Source of the DNA: Actinoplanes sandaracinus | Lineage (GTDB): Bacteria > Actinomycetota > Actinomycetes > Mycobacteriales > Micromonosporaceae | NCBI RefSeq assembly: GCF_030009775.1 | Contig: NZ_JASCTH010000005.1 | Span: forward strand, 124,001-188,000 | DNA length: 64,000 bases | Reading direction: 5' to 3' | Part shown: in pieces, positions 25,552-33,757 of the stretch | How positions within the stretch are numbered: position 1 is the first letter of the stretch | Layout of the letters: each line of letters begins with the position of its first letter | Made by a program: the position numbers and the translations under genes | Notes under the pieces: model-generated | Told to the model about the DNA's origin: nothing | Databases searched by the model: none | What the model saw: the letters and a program-made list of their open reading frames with translations, nothing else

Positions 25552-26339
25552 AACCGGGATCCTGGCCCTGCTGACCTACCCGTGCAAGATCTCGGTGCTT
25601 AGCTGGATCCTGAACCACCTCGCCGACCGCATCAGCGCCCACCGCAAGCAGAGCCTTTCCGCTGGCGGCGTCTCGATCTCGGCCGCAAGGCTCTGGTCAC
25701 CCTGGCCTATCTGCGGAACGGCGACACCTACACCCGCCTCCGGTTTCGAGATCGGCATCACCACCGCCTGGCGCTACGTCCAAGAAGCGATCCTCCTGCG
25801 AGCAGAGCCGCCGACGACCCGGACACGGCGATGCGGCGCATCCGAACCTTCGCCTACGCCATCCTGGACGGCTCTGATCCGACCGGCCGCGTCGCCGGCC
25901 AGAAGCCCTACCGCTCCGAAAGCATCAGCACCATGGCGTGAACGTGTAGGTCATCGCGGATGCCGCCGGCCGCCTCGTGTGGGCATCACCGACGCTGCCA
26001 GGCACGGTCCACGACCCGACTGCCACCCGCACCCACGGCCTCCTCGAGGCGCCAATCAGGACGGACTTGATGACCTTCGCGGACAAGGGCCATCAAGGCG
26101 GCCAGAGTAGCGTGCGAACGCCGTTCAAATGGCGCCGCTTCAGGCTGAAACGGTCACACCGACAGAAGGCAGTGAATCGGGCGCACCCGAAGATCCGCGC
26201 CCGCGCCGAACGAGCGACCGCCACCCTCAAGAACTGGAAGGTCCTCGCCACGCTGCGTTGCTGCCCATGCCGACCGACCGTGATCGCGCAAGCCATCCTC
26301 TTCCTGCACCACGTCGAATCCAGCCACTACGCAGGATAG
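25552..26339 (+). pseudogene. Decayed IS5-group (DDE) transposase, relic 1
   Basis: Family segments appear in order but in different frames. Around 25560-25650 is LALLTYPCKISVLSWILNHL. About 25655-25740 reads as RRLDLGRKALVTLAYLRNGDTYTR. Near 25765 is TTAWRYVQEAI. About 25820-25930 shows AMRRIRTFAYAILDG then RVAGQKPYRSES. From about 25977 there is VWASPTLPGTVHDPTATRTHGL, then LMTFADKGHQGG, KAVNRAHPKIRARAERATATLK and a C-terminal LRCCPCRPTVIAQAIL. Several frameshifts and an internal stop after the middle part make it inactive. The opening AACCGGGATCCT (25552-25563) recurs at the second relic. I could not define terminal inverted repeats. Confidence 0.85.
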
Positions 26340-26655: not shown

Positions 26656-27033
26656 GTGCTACTGCCCGCCGAAATTAACGGCGTAGAGGTACTCGTCGAA
26701 GTCACGAAAAGTGCAGGCAGCGAGCCCACATCAGGGTTTCAACGCAGCGCCGAGAAGATCTCAGATCTTTTAGACCGCGCTCAGATAGTCATCGAAGCGA
26801 TCGCAAATTCAATTTCTGAAACAGGACAGCGAATAGCCCAACAAGCAAGCCAGGCAAATCAGATCGAAATTCAATTCGGGCTGAAGTTCTCTGCGCAGGG
26901 AAAGATCATCATCGGCGCTTCCACGGCGGAGGGATCCCTCGCCGTGAAGATGATTTTCGCACAACAGCCTCGAACGGATTCCGATGAGTCATTTGAATGG
27001 CATGCTTCGAATGACGGCAAGGGGGAACAATGA
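26656..27033 (+). CDS. Trypsin-co-occurring domain 1 (Trypco1, CU044_2847-type) small protein
   Basis: A 125-residue protein starting at GTG 26656 behind AGGGGG (26646-26651). The N-terminal strand block MLLPAEINGVEVLVEV, a central helix with ISDLLDRAQIVIEAIANSI, and the C-terminal IEIQFGLKFSAQGKIIIGASTAEGSLAVKMIF match the compact Trypco1 domain, whose hallmark is the v.FGlKls...a.i...s.ea...v pattern. Trypco proteins are named because they are encoded beside trypsin-like proteases in conflict systems. That is true here: its TGA overlaps the protease-NTPase ATG (ATGA 27030-27033). A regulatory or adaptor role is inferred. Codon use and GC are unlike the neighbouring chromosome. Confidence 0.8.
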   Translation: MLLPAEINGVEVLVEVTKSAGSEPTSGFQRSAEKISDLLDRAQIVIEAIANSISETGQRIAQQASQANQIEIQFGLKFSAQGKIIIGASTAEGSLAVKMIFAQQPRTDSDESFEWHASNDGKGEQ

Positions 27034-29573
27034 CTCGTAGTGCTTCTAGGATCGATCCGCGGTCTTTCTTGGGGCGCGTGCTTCATCCCAGCCACGGACC
27101 GGTCGGCACCTGTTTTCAAGTCGCCGAGGGCTACTTGGTGACCGCAGAGCACGTTCTGAGGCAAATTTCTGCAGATCAGGTGGACTCGGAAGTATGGATC
27201 GAGCCAATGTCATCGCCCACGGCGCCCCCGTTGAGGGCCATCGTACTGGCCACCGACCCGAAGAACGATTTGGCTCTCCTGCGGTCAAACGACGACCTAC
27301 CCGCAAGTGTGCCTTCTCTAGCATATTCCGATCCTCAGCGAAGTGGCACCGAATTCACGTTGGCCGGTTATGGCATCGTTCCGGAAGCCGACGGCGAGGA
27401 GGCGCGGTTTAGATTTCTTCAGACTCAAGGAAAGTGGCAGGGAAGCGCGAATCGGATAGATGGTAGCGAAGTCGCAATCGCTACCGCCTCGGGAGCCGTT
27501 CAAGGAATGAGCGGCTGTCCGGCAATCCGCGACTACGACCAGACCGTGATCGGCGTCTTGAGTGGACGGTACACGTCCGAGGACGGATGGAATCAACATC
27601 GCATCTGGGTCACGCGCGTCGAGGCCGTTGAAGCCCTTATCAGCCCTTACGTCAAAGTCCCGACAGACCGAAGCGGAGGTACAGATTCCGCTACCCGAGA
27701 GAGCTGGCTCGATGAGTCTCCCATCGACCGTCAGCGCGTACTTGAGGACGTCTGCTACGTCGGTGACGACTGGACGGAAGAGTGGCAAAAGGCGAGCAAT
27801 GCACTGAAGGAATCTAGCGTACTCATTGTGGTGACAACTGGCGGCGCTGGAGCAACAACGTTCGCGGAACGGTTGCTGGCTGAAAACACTCCGACCAGCA
27901 CGCGTCTCACGCACGTCGATCCCGGTGACTGGGACGAGCCAGATGCCAAGCTGATACCTCGACGGGCCAAGTACGGTGCCGTATTGGATCTTCGAGATCC
28001 GGAGCACGATCGCCCGACCGAAGCATTTCTGCGAGGTATCAGCAAGCTGGCGACCTGGAACAAGAATATGGAGTCTTATCTCGTCATCACGGTCCGAGAT
28101 GAGCTATGGCCCGGCTTCGCAGCAAAAGCGATTGATGGATTCCTTACGGTGTATCTTCGCAGGTCTCCCGACCCACTGAAGGTAGCAAAGAGATACATCA
28201 GCGCGAGAGCTCCACGAATCCTTTCCGCGTTGGACGAGGAAGTCGTAGTCGAGCACCTGCGCAGACGGAACGCTGTCCAGACTATGACAGCCGTCGAGAG
28301 AATCCTAAGACTATTCGAAATATCCGTACAAAATGGCAACACGGCAATTCTTCCAACCGCTCTGGAAATCGCTGATGCAATTGACGAGCATCTCGACGAA
28401 CTCGACATCATGTTTGGCGAGCGTTCATCGGCAAACGGAGCACTCAATGCTCCGCCTCACCCTTCCGATAAAACGTCATTCTTGAATCCCGAGGACCGCT
28501 GTCTACTGATTGCCCTTGCATGTCAACCACATGTTCATCTTTCGAAGCTTGAGAGCAATTCCGACCTCCTGGAGAAGAGGCTGCGCGGATCAGGTTTCCA
28601 GGCACGTGAGGATGGAGCAGCCTTTTCGGCCCTCACAAAGCCTGGGTTACGGGGTCGACTGAAGAGCATCAAAGCAGTGCGCAGCCCAGGGGACGTCGTC
28701 TCACTGAAACGAGAGGGGTTAGCTGAGTCAGTCATCGCTTACGTATGGGAAAACTATCCGAAGGTCCGCCATCCGATAACGGCATGGCTAATAGAGTCGG
28801 CAGCTGAAGACAGCGAACGCGAGAAGGCTGTCGGAAACCTCCTCGCCACAGTCGTACAGAGTCGGCAAGACGTCGACTTCTTAAAGAATGAAATCGCATC
28901 GCAAACTCGAAAAAATAATCGGCCGAAAATTCTGCAGGAGGTGCTGACTCGAGCACTTGAAGATTCACACATGCGACGCCGATGTGAGAGATTGCTGTAC
29001 GACTGGGCGGTCCAGTCCGACTTTCAAGGCATTGTGGTCAAGGTCGCAACGAAGATGCTCTATGGACCTCGCAAAGACATCGCCCTGAAACGCTTACAAC
29101 GCGTTGCTGATCACACCACCTCTGACACACTCCAATCCACGATAGTAGAAGTTTTCCGCACTCTCGCCGATGACCCTTCCTCGTCCGACTGGTATCTGGA
29201 CAAGATCAGCTCCTGGTTCACCAAGAGCCCGGACAGCCGGGCATCAGGCCTAGCGTTTATGGCAATCTTGCAGAGTGAAACCAGAGGCTTCCGATGGCTG
29301 ATCAGCGAAGAGGCACAATCGGATAAGGTCGACCGCATGCTAGGACGACTGATTGCCGACCCCAGCCTGAACGAAGCCATCGTTCGGATGGTTCATCACG
29401 CGAGTCTAGATGGTGCAATGTACCCGTATGTGATTGAGCGGATCGGCAGAGCGGTTAGGGAGAGCGGTACATTCATGCTATTGATCGATCTGTCCGCCCG
29501 TCTTCGCGAGGCGGGACGCGAAGGCGGACGAGATCCGATCGCCGACCTCGGCAACCTTTTGAGGTTCCAATAG
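27030..29573 (+). CDS. Trypsin-like serine protease fused to degenerate STAND-type NTPase and helical C-terminus
   Basis: An 847-residue cytoplasmic protein with no signal peptide. Residues about 15-210 are a trypsin-like protease with a complete triad: His41 in GYLVTAEHV, Asp80 in DPKNDLALL, Ser161 in QGMSGCPAIRD. At about 262-460 is a P-loop-like domain: SSVLIVVTTGGAGATTFAERLL has the GxGGxGKTT layout but Ala275 where the Walker lysine should be; VLDLRD and YLVITVRDELW look like Walker-B and sensor strands. The rest is helical and repetitive, a likely sensor or scaffold region. Protease plus STAND-like architecture is that of NTP-dependent conflict systems (Kaur, Burroughs, Iyer and Aravind). 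The trigger and the protein it cleaves are unknown. It lies in the low-GC segment between the two transposase relics. Confidence 0.83.
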   Translation: MTRSASRIDPRSFLGRVLHPSHGPVGTCFQVAEGYLVTAEHVLRQISADQVDSEVWIEPMSSPTAPPLRAIVLATDPKNDLALLRSNDDLPASVPSLAYSDPQRSGTEFTLAGYGIVPEADGEEARFRFLQTQGKWQGSANRIDGSEVAIATASGAVQGMSGCPAIRDYDQTVIGVLSGRYTSEDGWNQHRIWVTRVEAVEALISPYVKVPTDRSGGTDSATRESWLDESPIDRQRVLEDVCYVGDDWTEEWQKASNALKESSVLIVVTTGGAGATTFAERLLAENTPTSTRLTHVDPGDWDEPDAKLIPRRAKYGAVLDLRDPEHDRPTEAFLRGISKLATWNKNMESYLVITVRDELWPGFAAKAIDGFLTVYLRRSPDPLKVAKRYISARAPRILSALDEEVVVEHLRRRNAVQTMTAVERILRLFEISVQNGNTAILPTALEIADAIDEHLDELDIMFGERSSANGALNAPPHPSDKTSFLNPEDRCLLIALACQPHVHLSKLESNSDLLEKRLRGSGFQAREDGAAFSALTKPGLRGRLKSIKAVRSPGDVVSLKREGLAESVIAYVWENYPKVRHPITAWLIESAAEDSEREKAVGNLLATVVQSRQDVDFLKNEIASQTRKNNRPKILQEVLTRALEDSHMRRRCERLLYDWAVQSDFQGIVVKVATKMLYGPRKDIALKRLQRVADHTTSDTLQSTIVEVFRTLADDPSSSDWYLDKISSWFTKSPDSRASGLAFMAILQSETRGFRWLISEEAQSDKVDRMLGRLIADPSLNEAIVRMVHHASLDGAMYPYVIERIGRAVRESGTFMLLIDLSARLREAGREGGRDPIADLGNLLRFQ

Positions 29574-29583
29574 GAGCACCCCC

Positions 29584-30261
29584 TTGACACTCTTGCCCCG
29601 CAGCATCAGCCTGCAAGCGGCCGAAAGATTGCGATGCCCGTCGGCTACTCCCGGATTAGATTTCGAGGTGACGTTCTCGGCGCGATATCGGGCAGGTCGG
29701 ACCCCCCACGAGAACCTCGACAGTCTGGTACGACACACATTGGTCGTCGAGGCCAGGCGAGAGGCTGAGAATTGGGATCTGGATGAGCAGACACACTACG
29801 CTGACGCCCTGAACGCCCAGCTAGGAAAGTCGAGCCGATGCCACGAGGGATACTACACCCGACTCACCGCCAAGGCGGTTGTAAATGTAAGCTCACAGGC
29901 ACGTATGGCTGCCATACAGCTTCGGGACGACAAGATCCGATTGGAACGCCTTCAGCGACTGAAGGGCGCTTTGTACACCGACCCCGGATTAGTTGCGATC
30001 GACTTTCTGGACCGCAATCCGTCGCTCACTATCACCGATACGGATCTGGCGCGATTTCGCAAACTCGCTCACGATCTGAAGCATCATGAACAATGGTGGT
30101 GGCCGGTTATGACAGCCTGGAGCGACCTTGCGCTGAAGACAGAGTCGCCTGAAGCAGCCTCACACCTGATGGAGATGCTGAGACAGGCGATACTCCAACT
30201 CAACCGTAAACTCGCCGAGTCCTACGGCATCGTTTCCAGCAAGGACCCATTTTCATCGTGA
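29584..30261 (+). CDS. Uncharacterised third gene of the Trypco1/trypsin operon (SPFH-reminiscent)
   Basis: A 225-residue protein starting at TTG 29584, with AGGAG at 29572-29576 and 7 nt spacing. I do not recognise a named family. The N-terminal 120 residues have a beta strand (FEVTFSARYRAG), a helix with HENLDSLVRHTLVVEAR, a second strand (AKAVVNVSSQAR) and a charged helix (AAIQLRDDKIRLERLQRLKGALYTDPG). That order resembles an SPFH/band-7 domain followed by its helix. The C-terminal half is helical. No transmembrane segment is visible. It follows the protease gene by 10 nt in the same transcript and ends just before a hairpin, so it is probably part of the same system, perhaps the target or the effector. 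Confidence 0.7.
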   Translation: MTLLPRSISLQAAERLRCPSATPGLDFEVTFSARYRAGRTPHENLDSLVRHTLVVEARREAENWDLDEQTHYADALNAQLGKSSRCHEGYYTRLTAKAVVNVSSQARMAAIQLRDDKIRLERLQRLKGALYTDPGLVAIDFLDRNPSLTITDTDLARFRKLAHDLKHHEQWWWPVMTAWSDLALKTESPEAASHLMEMLRQAILQLNRKLAESYGIVSSKDPFSS

Positions 30262-30624: not shown

Positions 30625-30721
30625 TGGCTAGTTGATCGGCGATGCGGTTCGCATCGGATTCCACGAACATTGCGCCGTCGGCGGCCGTACCCTTGGCGTA
30701 CGCACGTCCCCGGAGCGCCTC

Positions 30722-31984
30722 ATGCATGATATCGCTGGTCCGCCGTTGCTCTTGACGGACAACCCGGTCACCGGCCGGGGGGACGACCAATTCGGATTCG
30801 GCACGCACGGGCGTGTTCTCTGCGACGCCATTCAGGCGACCGTCCACCTGCCCCTGACCGTCGGTGTCTTCGGGCCGTGGGGAACAGGCAAGTCGAGTTT
30901 CCTGAACATCTGCCGCGAGATGTTGGACCGGCGCGGCATTCCCACGATCGCCTTCAACCCGTGGAAGTACGACGACAAGGAAGCGATCTGGCACGCGCTG
31001 ATCCAGACGATCCTCACCGAGATCGCCGGGGAGCCGGACGAACGCCGCCAGGATCTGGTGGCCAAGGCCAGGCGTCTGAGCAGCACCGCCACGTGGCTTC
31101 TCCTGCGCCACGCCGCCGCCCCGCTGAGCGCGGGTCTCGTCGACGGCGACGACGTGACGGCGGCCCGGGACGCCTGGCAGGCCAGAGGAGTCGAGAACTA
31201 CCGGCACATCAACCATTTCGAGGCCGACTTCGCCGACGTGGTGCGGACCTTCGTCGGTGACCGGGGACGTCTCGTGGTGTTCGTCGACGACCTGGACAGG
31301 TGTCACGGCGACACCGCCATCGCGGTGCTCGACGCCCTCAAGCTGTTTCTCGGCGAAGCCTCCTGCGTCTTCGTGCTGGCCATGGACTTCGATGTCATCT
31401 CGACGGCGGCCGCGAAACGCGTCGACGGCGATCAGGCGCGCGGGCGTCAGTACCTCGAAAAACTGATCCACTTCCCCTATCACCTGCCGGAGGTGCGGTT
31501 CGAGGCGGTATTCCGGCAACTGCAGGATTCCGTGGTGGGAGACCTCAGCGGGGATCCGGCGCTGTGGCAGCTCGCCGAGGACGCGTTCGGCGACAACCCG
31601 CGCCGGATTCGCCGATTCGTGTCGGCGCTCAACCTCACAGCGGCGACGCTCCGGTTGCATTCGCGACCGAGCAGGGACCGGCTGATGCAGGCGGCGATCC
31701 TGCTGGCGCTGCGGATGCGTTTTCCCGATTTCTTCCGGCGGGTCCGAGCGAATCCGGCGGTGTGGGTACGGCTGGACGAGGCCGCCCGCACGCAGAACAA
31801 CTCCGGGCTGCGCCAGGACGAGGTGGAGCTGGCCACGGCCGAACCCGCCTTGTCGGATCTCCTGCTGAGGATCACGCCCGGTGACCGCAGCGGGTGCTCG
31901 TTCCCGCCCATTCCGACGAAGGCGCAGATCGAGGTCGTCACGCAGGTCCTGACGGTGACCGGCGGGCCGGGCGACCAGTCATGA
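30722..31984 (+). CDS. KAP-family P-loop NTPase
   Basis: From ATG 30722 (GGAG at 30712-30715, 6 nt spacing) this is 420 residues. LTDNPVTGRGDDQFGF is the typical KAP N-terminal lead-in. Walker A is GPWGTGKSSF at residues 51-60. FNPWKYDDKEAIWHALI is the KAP-specific block after it. Walker B is RLVVFVDDLDRC (Asp189-Asp190), the DDLDRC signature of the family, followed by FVLAMDFDVIS. No clear membrane insertion is seen, unlike many KAP proteins. Bacterial KAP NTPases occur in defence and plasmid contexts. The stop overlaps the next gene (ATGA 31981-31984), so the two products probably act as one complex. GC is back to the chromosomal level here. Confidence 0.88.
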   Translation: MHDIAGPPLLLTDNPVTGRGDDQFGFGTHGRVLCDAIQATVHLPLTVGVFGPWGTGKSSFLNICREMLDRRGIPTIAFNPWKYDDKEAIWHALIQTILTEIAGEPDERRQDLVAKARRLSSTATWLLLRHAAAPLSAGLVDGDDVTAARDAWQARGVENYRHINHFEADFADVVRTFVGDRGRLVVFVDDLDRCHGDTAIAVLDALKLFLGEASCVFVLAMDFDVISTAAAKRVDGDQARGRQYLEKLIHFPYHLPEVRFEAVFRQLQDSVVGDLSGDPALWQLAEDAFGDNPRRIRRFVSALNLTAATLRLHSRPSRDRLMQAAILLALRMRFPDFFRRVRANPAVWVRLDEAARTQNNSGLRQDEVELATAEPALSDLLLRITPGDRSGCSFPPIPTKAQIEVVTQVLTVTGGPGDQS

Positions 31985-33738
31985 CCGCCGAGCCCCGTTA
32001 TGCGATCGGACTCGACATCGGCGACGGCGAAAGCTGCCTCGGATGGGCTCCGCTCGACCGCTCCGAGCCGACACGGATCTATGCGCGGCCGCGCTCCGGG
32101 GAACGCAGCATCGTGACGGCCATGGCGCAGTCGCCGGCCGGCGCGTCCCGACGGCTCATCGGCGACGAGGCCGTGACCAGCCACGGGGCGACCCACTTCA
32201 GCGTCAATTTCAAGGCGGCGCCGGACGTGCTCTGCTCCGGGACCCCGGATGCCGTCTGCTTCGCCCAGTCCCTGCTGACGGAGTTCCGGGAGCACCACCC
32301 GGAGGTCTTCACCGATGGCGTGGCGTTCGTCGGGCACCCGGCGGGGTGGCCTGCCGAGGCGGTCGACGCGTACGGCCGGCACCTCGGCCTGCTGGGCCTG
32401 CCGGTGCGGCTGATGCCGGAGTCGCAGTCGGCGCTGCTGCACGTCCGCGACCGGGGTCGTGACGAGACGCGACTCGAACGGGTCCTGATCGTCGACATCG
32501 GCTCGTCCACGACCGACTTCACGATCGTCGAGGACCTCTCACCGAGGAACCTGCCGGTGGGCGCCACTCTCGGTTGCCGGCAGATCGACGAGCAGCTCGC
32601 CGCCCTGGTCCGGACCACGCTGCAGCACGACGCGGCGCTGATGGAGGCGCTGACCGCCGACGGCGGCCCGGATTTCCTGCTCCTCGCCTGCCGGTGGGCC
32701 AAGGAGGCGCAGTTCTCCGGCGTGTCCCGACGGATCATGGACCTGCGCGAGTCGTGCGAGGAACGCTTGCGGCCGATCGTCGCGACCGCGTGGACGTGGC
32801 TGCTCGATCTCGAGATCCCGCAGATGGTGGCGGCGCCCGGCGGCTGGGGCGACGGCTTCCGTGCCGTGCTGACCGAGGTGGCGGACCTGCTCGGCGACCA
32901 GCGGCCGCACCTGGTGGTGCTCACCGGAGGCGGCTCGCGCATGCCCCTCGCCGACTGGTTGAGCCGTGAGGTCTTCCCCACCTCCATGGTCGAGCACGAC
33001 GAGGATCCGCAGTTCGCGGTCGCCCGCGGGCTGGTGAGCAACGGGCAGCATCGGGCCGCCGTCGACCGTTTCCGGCGTGACGTGACCGGCCTGATACGGG
33101 CTCCGGAGACCGAGCGGATGGTCCGGGCGGAGGCGGTGCTGGCACTCGACAGCATGAAGGACAAGGTCGCCGTCCAGGTGCTGGAGGCACGCGCCTCGGC
33201 CGCCGATCTGGCCAACCACATCAAGTTCGGCATGTACGAGGCGACACAGGCGCTGGCCGACTCCCTCGCCTACTACCTGTCGATGCGGGTGGAGAGGATC
33301 TGCCGGCGGCACGGCGTCCCCGATCATCGGGTGCGCCTTGAGCTGACCCTGCCGGACCTGTTCACCGATCGGCTGGACCGCGTTCTCGAACGCGTCGACA
33401 AGGCCGAACGATTCACCGAACACAGCACGCCGGCGGTACTGGGTCAACTCGGTGTGCCCCAGGAAACGGTCAGCCAACTCTTCAGCTCGGCTCTCGAACG
33501 AATCAGAGCGAAGTTCGCCCCGGCCGTGAACCCGGAGATGGCGACGTTCGCGATCGGCGCCGTCACCAGCGGCTCCGGCTGGGCCGCCGATCGTGCCGCG
33601 CGAGCATGGATCCAGCGCATGCTCCGCCTCGGCGAGTACTCACCGGAAGAGCTCGACCGGATCACCGCCGAGGTGATGGCCGCCATCGCCGAGCAGACCA
33701 ACGACCGAGCCCGCGACCTGGAACGCTGGCTGGCCTGA
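31981..33738 (+). CDS. Hsp70/actin-fold ATPase partner of the KAP protein
   Basis: A 585-residue protein with the three nucleotide motifs of the actin/Hsp70 fold: phosphate-1 YAIGLDIGDGES (residues 7-18), phosphate-2 VLIVDIGSSTTDFTIVED (Asp172), and the adenosine motif LVVLTGGGSRMPLADW (Thr315-Ser319). Between these it keeps the AFVGHPAGWP block. The C-terminal 220 residues are helical and charged and do not look like the DnaK peptide-binding domain, so it is not a general chaperone. The 4-nt overlap with the KAP gene implies coupled synthesis. It may sense or hold a client and signal to the KAP ATPase (inference). Confidence 0.8.
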   Translation: MTAEPRYAIGLDIGDGESCLGWAPLDRSEPTRIYARPRSGERSIVTAMAQSPAGASRRLIGDEAVTSHGATHFSVNFKAAPDVLCSGTPDAVCFAQSLLTEFREHHPEVFTDGVAFVGHPAGWPAEAVDAYGRHLGLLGLPVRLMPESQSALLHVRDRGRDETRLERVLIVDIGSSTTDFTIVEDLSPRNLPVGATLGCRQIDEQLAALVRTTLQHDAALMEALTADGGPDFLLLACRWAKEAQFSGVSRRIMDLRESCEERLRPIVATAWTWLLDLEIPQMVAAPGGWGDGFRAVLTEVADLLGDQRPHLVVLTGGGSRMPLADWLSREVFPTSMVEHDEDPQFAVARGLVSNGQHRAAVDRFRRDVTGLIRAPETERMVRAEAVLALDSMKDKVAVQVLEARASAADLANHIKFGMYEATQALADSLAYYLSMRVERICRRHGVPDHRVRLELTLPDLFTDRLDRVLERVDKAERFTEHSTPAVLGQLGVPQETVSQLFSSALERIRAKFAPAVNPEMATFAIGAVTSGSGWAADRAARAWIQRMLRLGEYSPEELDRITAEVMAAIAEQTNDRARDLERWLA

Positions 33739-33757
33739 GCCGCCGCCGTCGGCGTGG

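What the first reader, a model, noticed from the sequence alone, without database searches (positions are those of the whole stretch)
30722..33738. KAP ATPase and Hsp70/actin-fold ATPase coupled as a two-gene system
The genes overlap by ATGA. The KAP protein has intact Walker A and the DDLDRC Walker B. The partner has all three actin-fold nucleotide motifs but a non-DnaK C-terminus. KAP NTPases occur in defence settings; an Hsp70-like partner would be a distinctive sensor or switch, and I know of no described function for this pair.
Basis: partly seen in the sequence, partly recalled or inferred. Interest (0 to 1): 0.75.

Follow-up and report, generated by a model that had tools for sequence, protein, structure and literature searches.

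The report
Mobile KAP ATPase plus Hsp70-like pair
Two overlapping genes, one for an ATPase of a family used in phage defence and one for an Hsp70-like ATPase without the chaperone's substrate-grasping part, stay together as an exact two-gene unit at different places in a few relatives of Actinoplanes, and are probably an undescribed immune switch whose function has not been tested.

Summary
A KAP P-loop ATPase (30722-31984) overlaps by ATGA a protein (31981-33738) whose N-terminal ~360 residues have the Hsp70 nucleotide-binding fold with the catalytic residues kept, followed by a helical tail instead of a chaperone substrate-binding domain. The pair is conserved: five of 354 genomes of the bacterial family carry it, all five with the same 4-base overlap. 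In three close relatives the DNA similarity starts and stops at the edges of the two genes, in unrelated surroundings, so the unit is these two genes and its place differs. The paired KAPs form one supported clade; their sister KAPs have a TIR gene (1) or a divergent AAA-TPR gene (2) as neighbour instead. KAP is the constrained part (dN/dS 0.09-0.10), the Hsp70-like protein the changing part (0.27-0.38). Of 995 solved chains aligned, the KAP model resembles RdrA, the ring ATPase of RADAR, best. Best reading: a two-component conflict (defence) module, with a KAP ring as effector motor and the Hsp70-like protein as nucleotide-gated sensor. Defence itself is inferred, not shown; only 2 of 5 loci have conflict-type neighbours. 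I found no report of this pair. New variant of a known kind.

The parts
30712..30715 (+). GGAG ribosome-binding site 6 nt before the KAP start
   Evidence: sequence; roughly the last 30 bp before the ATG are partly shared with three orthologues although DNA further upstream is not
30722..31984 (+). KAP P-loop NTPase, 420 aa (P0001)
   Evidence: Pfam PF07693 124.7 bits; PADLOC QatA, PDC-S20 and PifA profiles
30872..30898 (+). Walker A, GPWGTGKSS (residues 51-59)
   Evidence: GPWG[TS]GKSS in 7 of 7 KAPs of the clade
31271..31303 (+). Walker B, LVVFVDDLDRC (residues 184-194)
   Evidence: DDLDRC in 7 of 7
31981..31984 (+). ATGA start-stop overlap of the two genes
   Evidence: ATGA (3) or GTGA (2) at the same place in 5 of 5 pairs
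31981..33738 (+). Hsp70-like ATPase without chaperone substrate-binding domain, 585 aa (P0002)
   Evidence: profile hits Hsc70/DnaK nucleotide domains at 1.5e-13; structure comparison Z 27-29, mostly over residues 4-363
32005..32031 (+). phosphate-1 motif IGLDIGDGE (residues 9-17); Asp12 invariant
32212..32214 (+). Lys78, aligns with the catalytic lysine of DnaK/Hsc70 (K70/K71)
   Evidence: profile alignment to DnaK; Lys in 10 of 10; the role of K70/K71 is recalled
32419..32421 (+). Glu147, aligns with the conserved Hsp70 glutamate (E171/E175)
   Evidence: 10 of 10; the Hsp70 numbering is recalled
32485..32523 (+). phosphate-2 motif LIVDIGSSTTDFT (residues 169-181); Asp172 invariant
32920..32946 (+). 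adenosine motif LTGGGSRMP (residues 314-322)
33067..33735 (+). helical C-terminal region (residues 363-585) in place of an Hsp70 substrate-binding domain
   Evidence: model me500e16c751f has no strand after residue 339
33331..33600 (+). most variable stretch of the Hsp70-like protein (residues 451-540)
   Evidence: four-way identity 20-37% per block of 30, against 43-83% in the blocks before it and 50-80% after it; pLDDT under 50 for part of it
30653..33750 (+). whole unit: block of DNA similarity shared with three other genomes of the genus, nothing outside it within the 20-kb regions compared

Best explanation
A two-gene conflict (probably anti-phage) module made of two ATPases. The KAP protein is the constant core: a P-loop ATPase that most likely assembles into an RdrA/QatA-like ring and does the damage or blocks the invader, as the KAP protein PifA does. 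The Hsp70-like protein is the nucleotide-gated sensor or switch. It has a complete Hsp70-type ATPase domain, but instead of grasping unfolded peptides it carries a helical tail with a variable stretch that would recognise the trigger; its ATP/ADP state would hold back or license the KAP ring. The unit is translated as a coupled pair and occurs at different places as these two genes alone. Shown: domain identities, conserved catalytic residues, conserved overlap, conserved pairing, unit borders, different neighbours of sister KAPs. Inferred: defence role, physical complex, ring assembly, division of labour, movement between genomes.
For: Pair in 5 of 354 family genomes, always adjacent with a 4-base overlap. 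DNA similarity is confined to the two genes in 4 of 4 comparisons and reaches their edges in the 3 close ones. Paired KAPs are one clade (99/97); the sister clade (99/99) has TIR (1) or divergent AAA_16-TPR (2) neighbours and no match to P0002 in the genome. KAP under strong constraint (dN/dS 0.09-0.10), Hsp70-like 0.27-0.38. Ranks 1-7 of the KAP structure list are RdrA or RdrA-RdrB entries, Z 16.3-18.7 against 13.4 for the next. QatA, a KAP, binds DNA and forms a 7- or 8-mer (PMC13279940, passages). Catalytic Asp/Lys/Glu/Asp of Hsp70 conserved in 10 of 10 relatives. Decayed remnants exist (G674 Hsp70-like with stops, G446 26-residue KAP piece), as expected of turned-over conflict genes.
Against: No defence phenotype is known. 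Only 2 of 5 pair loci have conflict-type neighbours (window Trypco1-trypsin; G435 NACHT); those scanned in G432, G442 and G475 look ordinary. No relative of the pair in viral contigs, one distant KAP in phages, only distant relatives of either protein on plasmids. No enzymatic effector domain recognised in either protein. In Qat, deletion or mutation of the KAP protein QatA did not abolish defence, so a KAP need not be the effector. The pair's dS (0.40-0.60) is not lower than that of rpoB or gyrB (0.19-0.49), so there is no sign of recent transfer. The tail's dN/dS excess over the ATPase domain is not significant by bootstrap. The KAP model is of medium confidence (pLDDT 69.8) and the RdrA match is weak by Foldseek (E 2e-4). 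A complex could not be modelled here.
Confidence: 0.43

Rival explanations
1. Roles reversed: KAP is the sensing switch and the Hsp70-like protein's helical tail is the effector, acting on membranes. Several relatives carry hydrophobic stretches in the tail.
For: 19-residue hydropathy peaks of 1.5-2.4 in the tail of G475, G501 (both copies) and G718; the first G501 copy stands beside a RyR/TrkA_N gene, both beside TIR genes, G718 beside two dynamins. QatA, a KAP, is dispensable for part of Qat defence.
Against: No such stretch reaches 1.3 in the four proteins of the window's own clade. In the sister KAP of G714 the neighbour is an effector-type TIR gene, but in G497/G499 it is a sensor-type AAA-TPR gene, so the neighbours do not settle the direction.
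Confidence: 0.2
2. Toxin-antitoxin-like or self-protection pair: the Hsp70-like protein is a dedicated chaperone that keeps the KAP ATPase folded or inactive, without sensing an invader.
For: Strict pairing, 4-base overlap, KAP conserved and partner changing.
Against: Gene order is KAP first, whereas antitoxin-first is usual (recalled). No substrate-binding domain is predicted. Sister KAPs exist in genomes without a match to P0002.
Confidence: 0.15
3. A cellular (non-defence) machine, for example an actin-like scaffold with an ATPase partner.
For: The N-terminal domain is actin-fold; weak FtsA, MreB-like and ParM hits below cut-off and a PRTRC_D hit far below its cut-off. Three of five loci have ordinary neighbours.
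Against: Structure and profile comparisons give Hsp70 nucleotide domains. Patchy presence (5 of 354), different genomic places, decayed remnants.
Confidence: 0.14
4. The pair is one part of the neighbouring Trypco1-trypsin island (26656-30261) rather than a system of its own.
For: It lies 460 bp downstream on the same strand.
Against: DNA similarity with other pair loci covers only the two genes; G+C 55-57% in the island against 65-71% in the 2-kb windows that hold the pair; no Trypco1 or trypsin among the neighbours scanned at the four other loci.
Confidence: 0.03

Closest known systems
QatA, KAP ATPase of the Qat anti-phage system
   Same: KAP domain; best NCBIfam and PADLOC profile (126.6 bits; 1.6e-31). 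QatA binds DNA and is a 7- or 8-mer (PMC13279940, passages).
   Different: Far below the QatA cut-off of 600 bits; no QatB, QatC or QatD in the unit; about 170-230 residues shorter than the profiles.
RdrA, ring ATPase of RADAR
   Same: Closest solved structure to the KAP model among 995 chains aligned: ranks 1-7, Z 16.3-18.7.
   Different: 12-14% identity; RdrA is about twice as long; no RdrB deaminase partner; no RdrA-named profile among the PADLOC hits at E <= 0.01 (whether the library holds one was not checked).
PifA (F-plasmid exclusion of T7)
   Same: PifA profile match 1.4e-24 over residues 12-261; a protein that inhibits phages (PMC11990801, passages).
   Different: PifA acts without an Hsp70-like partner (recalled); the match covers only the first third of the profile.
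CnuD Hsp70-like proteins of CoCoNuT restriction systems
   Same: Hsp70-like NBD used in a predicted defence system (PMC11090510, passages).
   Different: CnuD belongs with McrB/McrC-type proteins and is predicted there to hydrolyse ATP with very low efficiency at best; here the catalytic residues are complete and the partner is a KAP.
[quoted passage not shown]
   Same: Actinobacterial conflict systems with an Hsp70 lacking the peptide-binding domain (PMC7159879, passages).
   Different: Those have DO-GTPases and GAP1, with GrpE; none of these is in the two-gene unit.
KAP as replacement for STAND NTPases in bacterial conflict systems
   Same: KAP as central NTPase of counter-invader systems (PMC8195603, passages) and of some retroelement-diversified targets (PMC10907252, passages).
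   Different: No Hsp70-like partner is described in the passages seen.

Membership tests
KAP P-loop NTPase family (PF07693) | Score above the curated cut-off | tested here: met
   124.7 bits, cut-off 20
KAP P-loop NTPase family (PF07693) | Walker A and DDxDR-type Walker B | tested here: met
   GPWGTGKSS and VDDLDRC; Walker A varies only T/S, DDLDRC in 7 of 7
KAP P-loop NTPase family (PF07693) | Transmembrane segments inserted in the NTPase domain (typical of many KAPs, recalled) | tested here: inconclusive
   No hydrophobic window over 1.3 in the insert of the window's KAP; weak ones in G714, G497 and G499
Qat system | QatA equivalog score and QatB/C/D partners | tested here: not met
   126.6 of 600 bits; the unit has two genes only
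RADAR | RdrA-like ring ATPase fold | tested here: inconclusive
   Top structural match, Z 18.7, rmsd 4.5 over 316 residues, 13% identity, on a model of pLDDT 69.8
RADAR | RdrB adenosine deaminase partner | tested here: not met
   Partner is Hsp70-like; no third gene in the unit
Hsp70 family | Nucleotide-binding domain fold | tested here: met
   Profile 1.5e-13 to Hsc70; Z 27-29, mostly over residues 4-363
Hsp70 family | Catalytic Asp, Lys, Glu, Asp of the ATPase site | tested here: met
   D12, K78, E147, D172 align with DnaK and are invariant in 10 of 10; roles in Hsp70 recalled
Hsp70 family | Beta-sandwich substrate-binding domain | tested here: not met
   No strand after residue 339 in the model; Pfam HSP70 not among the hits of P0002 at E <= 0.1
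CoCoNuT type III (CnuD) | McrB/McrC-type partners | tested here: not met
   No such gene in the unit
GAP1-N2 GTPase-HSP70 systems | DO-GTPase and GAP1 genes | tested here: not met
   Two-gene unit, one KAP and one Hsp70-like
ParM/FtsA-type actin homologues | Family score above cut-off | tested here: inconclusive
   FtsA 19.1 of 31.8 bits, ParM_N 16.9 of 27.4; the structure lists shown are filled by Hsp70
Anti-phage defence system | Protection against phage | not testable with these tools
   needs phage challenge

The most novel reading that the evidence does not exclude
A new kind of bacterial immune switch: an Hsp70-type ATPase that has given up chaperone work and, through a variable helical tail, senses an invader and by its ATP/ADP state assembles or releases an RdrA-like KAP ring, the KAP being a common core that swaps sensor or effector partners (Hsp70-like, TIR, AAA-TPR) between lineages.
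Probability: 0.25. Interest if true: 0.78.

Novelty: new variant of a known kind. Interest (0 to 1): 0.55.

Why it matters
If it works as proposed, it would show an Hsp70 nucleotide switch used as an immune sensor rather than a chaperone, and would tie KAP ATPases, whose mechanism is unclear, to the ring ATPase of RADAR and to partner exchange. The unit is about 3.1 kb with clean borders, so it can be cloned and tested directly. The Hsp70-type catalytic residues and the Walker motifs give ready point mutants.

Tried and rejected
Rejected: (1) Pair as part of the Trypco1-trypsin island: unit borders exclude it. (2) KAP-Hsp70 fusion in Actinoplanes liguriensis (L002 and L021, ORF of 1157 aa): the KAP stretch there holds runs of N and what look to me like adapter-derived residues (recalled pattern), so it is not evidence of fusion; the same contig (21144 bases) appears as L002 and as G432 and is counted once. 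(3) L003 (Acidobacteriaceae, 36 residues at 53%): no related longer ORF, taken as chance. (4) Empty-site test: in the four relatives with close copies of both flanking genes on one contig (G402, G417, G439, G454) these lie at least 340 kb apart, and the two G406 regions fetched match the window's flanks only by single genes, so no simple empty site could be defined. (5) First dN/dS run on rpoB used an antisense frame and was redone on the right frame; the gyrB frame includes an N-terminal read-through, so its values are rough. (6) First KAP tree attempt failed, redone.

Dropped rows: six of the 15 genomes (G406, G500, G562, G604, G672, G738; matches of 39-92 residues, E 1e-5 to 1e-3) were not counted as relatives. 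G432 was left out of KAP dN/dS and of the tree because of its N gap. Of the 108 genomes with a KAP match the tree holds 29 rows: the 30 matches that came with a locus, without G432. The DNA comparison shows matches over 80 bases at E <= 1e-10 only; the one with G475 was made at E <= 1e-5.

Led nowhere: viral contig scans with both alignments (0 relatives among 74 and 24 pattern stretches); phages (none; one distant KAP); plasmids (one distant Hsp70-like in Calothrix; three distant KAPs); promoter scan (none). Literature: ten searches; no title or abstract start in their listings describes a KAP-Hsp70 pair, and ('KAP NTPase' with 'Hsp70') returned 0 papers. I looked for terms inside seven of the papers only and saw passages, not whole texts; one of the seven (PMC7016017) held none of the terms. 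In structure lists, families not listed are not excluded.

Full report
What is there. The KAP gene starts at ATG 30722, six bases after GGAG, and ends at 31984; the second gene starts at 31981 and ends at 33738; the junction is ATGA. P0001 (420 aa) scores 124.7 bits to KAP_NTPase (cut-off 20) and matches PADLOC QatA, PDC-S20 and PifA profiles over the P-loop part. P0002 (585 aa) has no Pfam or NCBIfam hit above a curated cut-off: FtsA, MreB-like and ParM hits are weak, PRTRC_D is 30 of 215 bits.

The partner is Hsp70-type. A profile of ten relatives matches Hsc70 and DnaK nucleotide-binding domains in the PDB at up to 1.5e-13. The predicted structure (nine rows, mean pLDDT 80) matches Hsp70 nucleotide domains, mostly over residues 4-363, with Z 27-29, rmsd 3.2-3.9, 316-330 residues and 16-22% identity in the 50 rows shown; Foldseek agrees. 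In the profile alignment to DnaK, D12, K78, E147 and D172 fall on the Hsp70 catalytic residues (their role is recalled), and all four are invariant in 10 of 10 relatives. After residue 339 the model has no beta strand, so an Hsp70 substrate-binding domain is not seen; the tail is helical and partly of low confidence (482-493, 503-505 and 511-531 below 50).

The KAP model. Mean pLDDT is 69.8 from seven rows. Foldseek's first six matches are RdrA of RADAR, at E 2e-4 to 5e-4. In the second look, 995 chains aligned, ranks 1-7 are RdrA or RdrA-RdrB entries, Z 16.3-18.7 over 270-328 residues, and the next entry (ORC) has 13.4. This is a fold resemblance at 12-14% identity and shows no function. QatA, another KAP, is reported to bind DNA and to form a 7- or 8-mer; the same paper finds that defence is partly kept without QatA (PMC13279940, passages).

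Conservation of the pair. P0002 matches 15 of 354 genomes of the family at E <= 0.001. Five carry an intact close copy (G000, G432, G435, G442, G475; the four others 46-80% identical over the matched part, for G475 residues 5-462); G674 has a broken copy with stops; G501 (two copies), G718 and G530 have distant ones at 31-35%; six more are short weak matches that I set aside. P0001 matches 108 of 354. Of 30 KAP loci with 1.5-kb flanks, 5 have an Hsp70-like gene next to them, the same five genomes. In 5 of 5 the start of the second gene overlaps the KAP stop by four bases, ATGA in three and GTGA in two. In a spread of 396 genomes of the phylum only the own genome matched. In 394 of the class, with the profile and E <= 1e-10, 9 matched, the eight others only distantly, and none of their nine loci held a KAP within the flanks. 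One scan of the genome contigs, which finds close relatives only, gave one further real locus, Actinoplanes liguriensis, which is the same contig as G432. The viral contigs gave no relative and the phage records one distant KAP only; plasmids hold one distant Hsp70-like gene and three distant KAPs.

Borders. Nucleotide comparison of window 20-42 kb with 20-kb regions around the pair in G432, G435 and G442 shows similarity only from 30653, 30702 or 30654 to 33748, 33742 or 33750, at 83-89% identity (for G432 in three blocks, because of N gaps), and nothing outside. The more distant G475 locus matches only within 30742-31036 and 31996-33092, at 66-72%. Roughly the last 30 bases before the KAP start are partly shared; after the second stop the sequences part at once. 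The neighbours scanned differ: a Trypco1-trypsin island in the window; a NACHT gene with NNH7 domain, LamG, CARDB and TetR genes in G435; RCC1, CHAP and TPR genes in G442; aldo/keto reductase, EAL, LuxR-type AAA, peroxidase and TetR genes in G475; carboxypeptidase, PilZ, GGDEF-EAL and RNA-ligase-like genes in G432. So the unit is these two genes and it lies in different places. Only 2 of 5 loci have an obvious conflict-type neighbour.

History. In a maximum-likelihood tree of 29 KAPs, seven form a clade (100/100) that splits into the paired ones (G000, G435, G442, G475; 99/97) and G714, G497, G499 (99/99). These three genomes have no match to P0002 at E <= 0.001. In G714 the KAP is followed on the same strand by a TIR gene (TIR_2 1.1e-10), with two divergent AAA-type genes upstream, one with a related TIR domain; in G497 and G499 it stands beside a divergent gene, AAA_16-TPR in G497 and 69% identical to it in G499. 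The KAP is thus the constant element and neighbours differ by lineage. Distant Hsp70-like relatives stand beside TIR-WD40 genes and, for one copy, a RyR/TrkA_N gene (G501), and beside a SEFIR gene, an HSP70-WD40 gene and two dynamins (G718).

Rates. By simple counting (Nei-Gojobori), KAP has dN/dS 0.09-0.10 in three comparisons; the Hsp70-like protein 0.27-0.35 in the three with the window and 0.29-0.38 in the other three; dS is similar in both genes (0.40-0.60). The tail (381-585) is higher than the ATPase part (0.31-0.42 against 0.24-0.31), but by bootstrap (two comparisons) the tail failed to exceed it in 10% and 22% of 1000 draws, so this is not significant; KAP against the ATPase part is clear (0 of 1000 in both). 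Four-way identity drops to 20-37% per 30 residues at 451-540. dS of rpoB and gyrB ranks G442 as nearest to the window's genome and G435 as farthest (0.185 and 0.243; 0.300 and 0.493), while the pair ranks G435 nearest and G442 farthest, which hints at horizontal movement. Against that, the pair's dS is not below that of the core genes, so a recent transfer is not indicated; two core genes are few, and the gyrB frame is rough.

How it most likely works. Two ATPases coupled in translation, patchy, at different places and subject to decay, one of a family with known anti-phage members (QatA and PifA) and with sister genes beside TIR or AAA-TPR genes, fit a conflict module best. I assign the motor or effector role to KAP, because it is the constrained and constant part, and the sensor or switch role to the Hsp70-like protein, because it changes faster and is the part that differs between lineages. 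The opposite assignment stays open: relatives have hydrophobic stretches in the tail that could act on membranes, though the four proteins of the window's clade do not.

What is known. Hsp70-like ATPase domains in predicted defence systems are described for CoCoNuTs (PMC11090510, passages) and for GAP1-N2 GTPase systems, including Hsp70 domains without peptide-binding domain (PMC7159879, passages). KAP ATPases as replacements for STAND NTPases are described in PMC8195603 (passages). None of the passages seen describes a KAP with an Hsp70-like partner, and the listings of the ten searches named under Tried and rejected show none. The library holds open-licence papers only, so this is not proof of absence. 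I therefore call it a new variant of a known kind: a KAP-centred conflict module with an Hsp70-type partner, its defence function untested.

Noticed in passing
window 26656-30261: Trypco1 gene, a trypsin-like peptidase with a weak nSTAND3-like match (847 aa) and a 225-aa orphan, overlapping or closely spaced, in DNA of 55-57% G+C against about 70% in most of the window: a separate predicted conflict system.
   Followed up: partly
window 25595-26339: Remnant of an IS element with a DDE_Tnp_4 transposase domain in one of two overlapping frames, at the low-G+C island's upstream edge.
   Followed up: no
L063:10271-12583: Caspase domain (PF00656, 8e-14) fused to a Cpn60/TCP-1 chaperonin domain (PF00118, 1.6e-40) in one 771-aa protein, right beside a 26-residue KAP remnant 88% identical to the window's KAP.
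   Followed up: no
L026 and L027 (G501:C20): Two Hsp70-like relatives about 13 kb apart, both beside TIR-WD40 or TIR-TPR genes and the first beside a RyR/TrkA_N gene; looks like a duplicated conflict locus.
   Followed up: partly
L028:5211-15315 (G718): SEFIR gene (PADLOC bSEFIR 4.5e-32), HSP70-WD40 fusion, Hsp70-like relative of P0002 and two dynamins in a row.
   Followed up: partly
L020:9983-11902 (Calothrix plasmid AP018209.1): Distant Hsp70-like relative (28% identity) on a conjugative cyanobacterial plasmid, annotated hypothetical, with no KAP match in the 21-kb region and, by eye, a long hydrophobic stretch in its tail.
   Followed up: no
L064, L065, L066: More distant KAP homologues with two further genes, P-loop NTPases where scanned (L064), of 334-353 and 954-1034 aa beside them in three genomes, in L065 with the middle one called on the other strand: a possible three-NTPase operon.
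   Followed up: no
G000 contigs C16 and C57: gyrB domain matched twice at identical score on two contigs of the window's own assembly, perhaps assembly redundancy.
   Followed up: no
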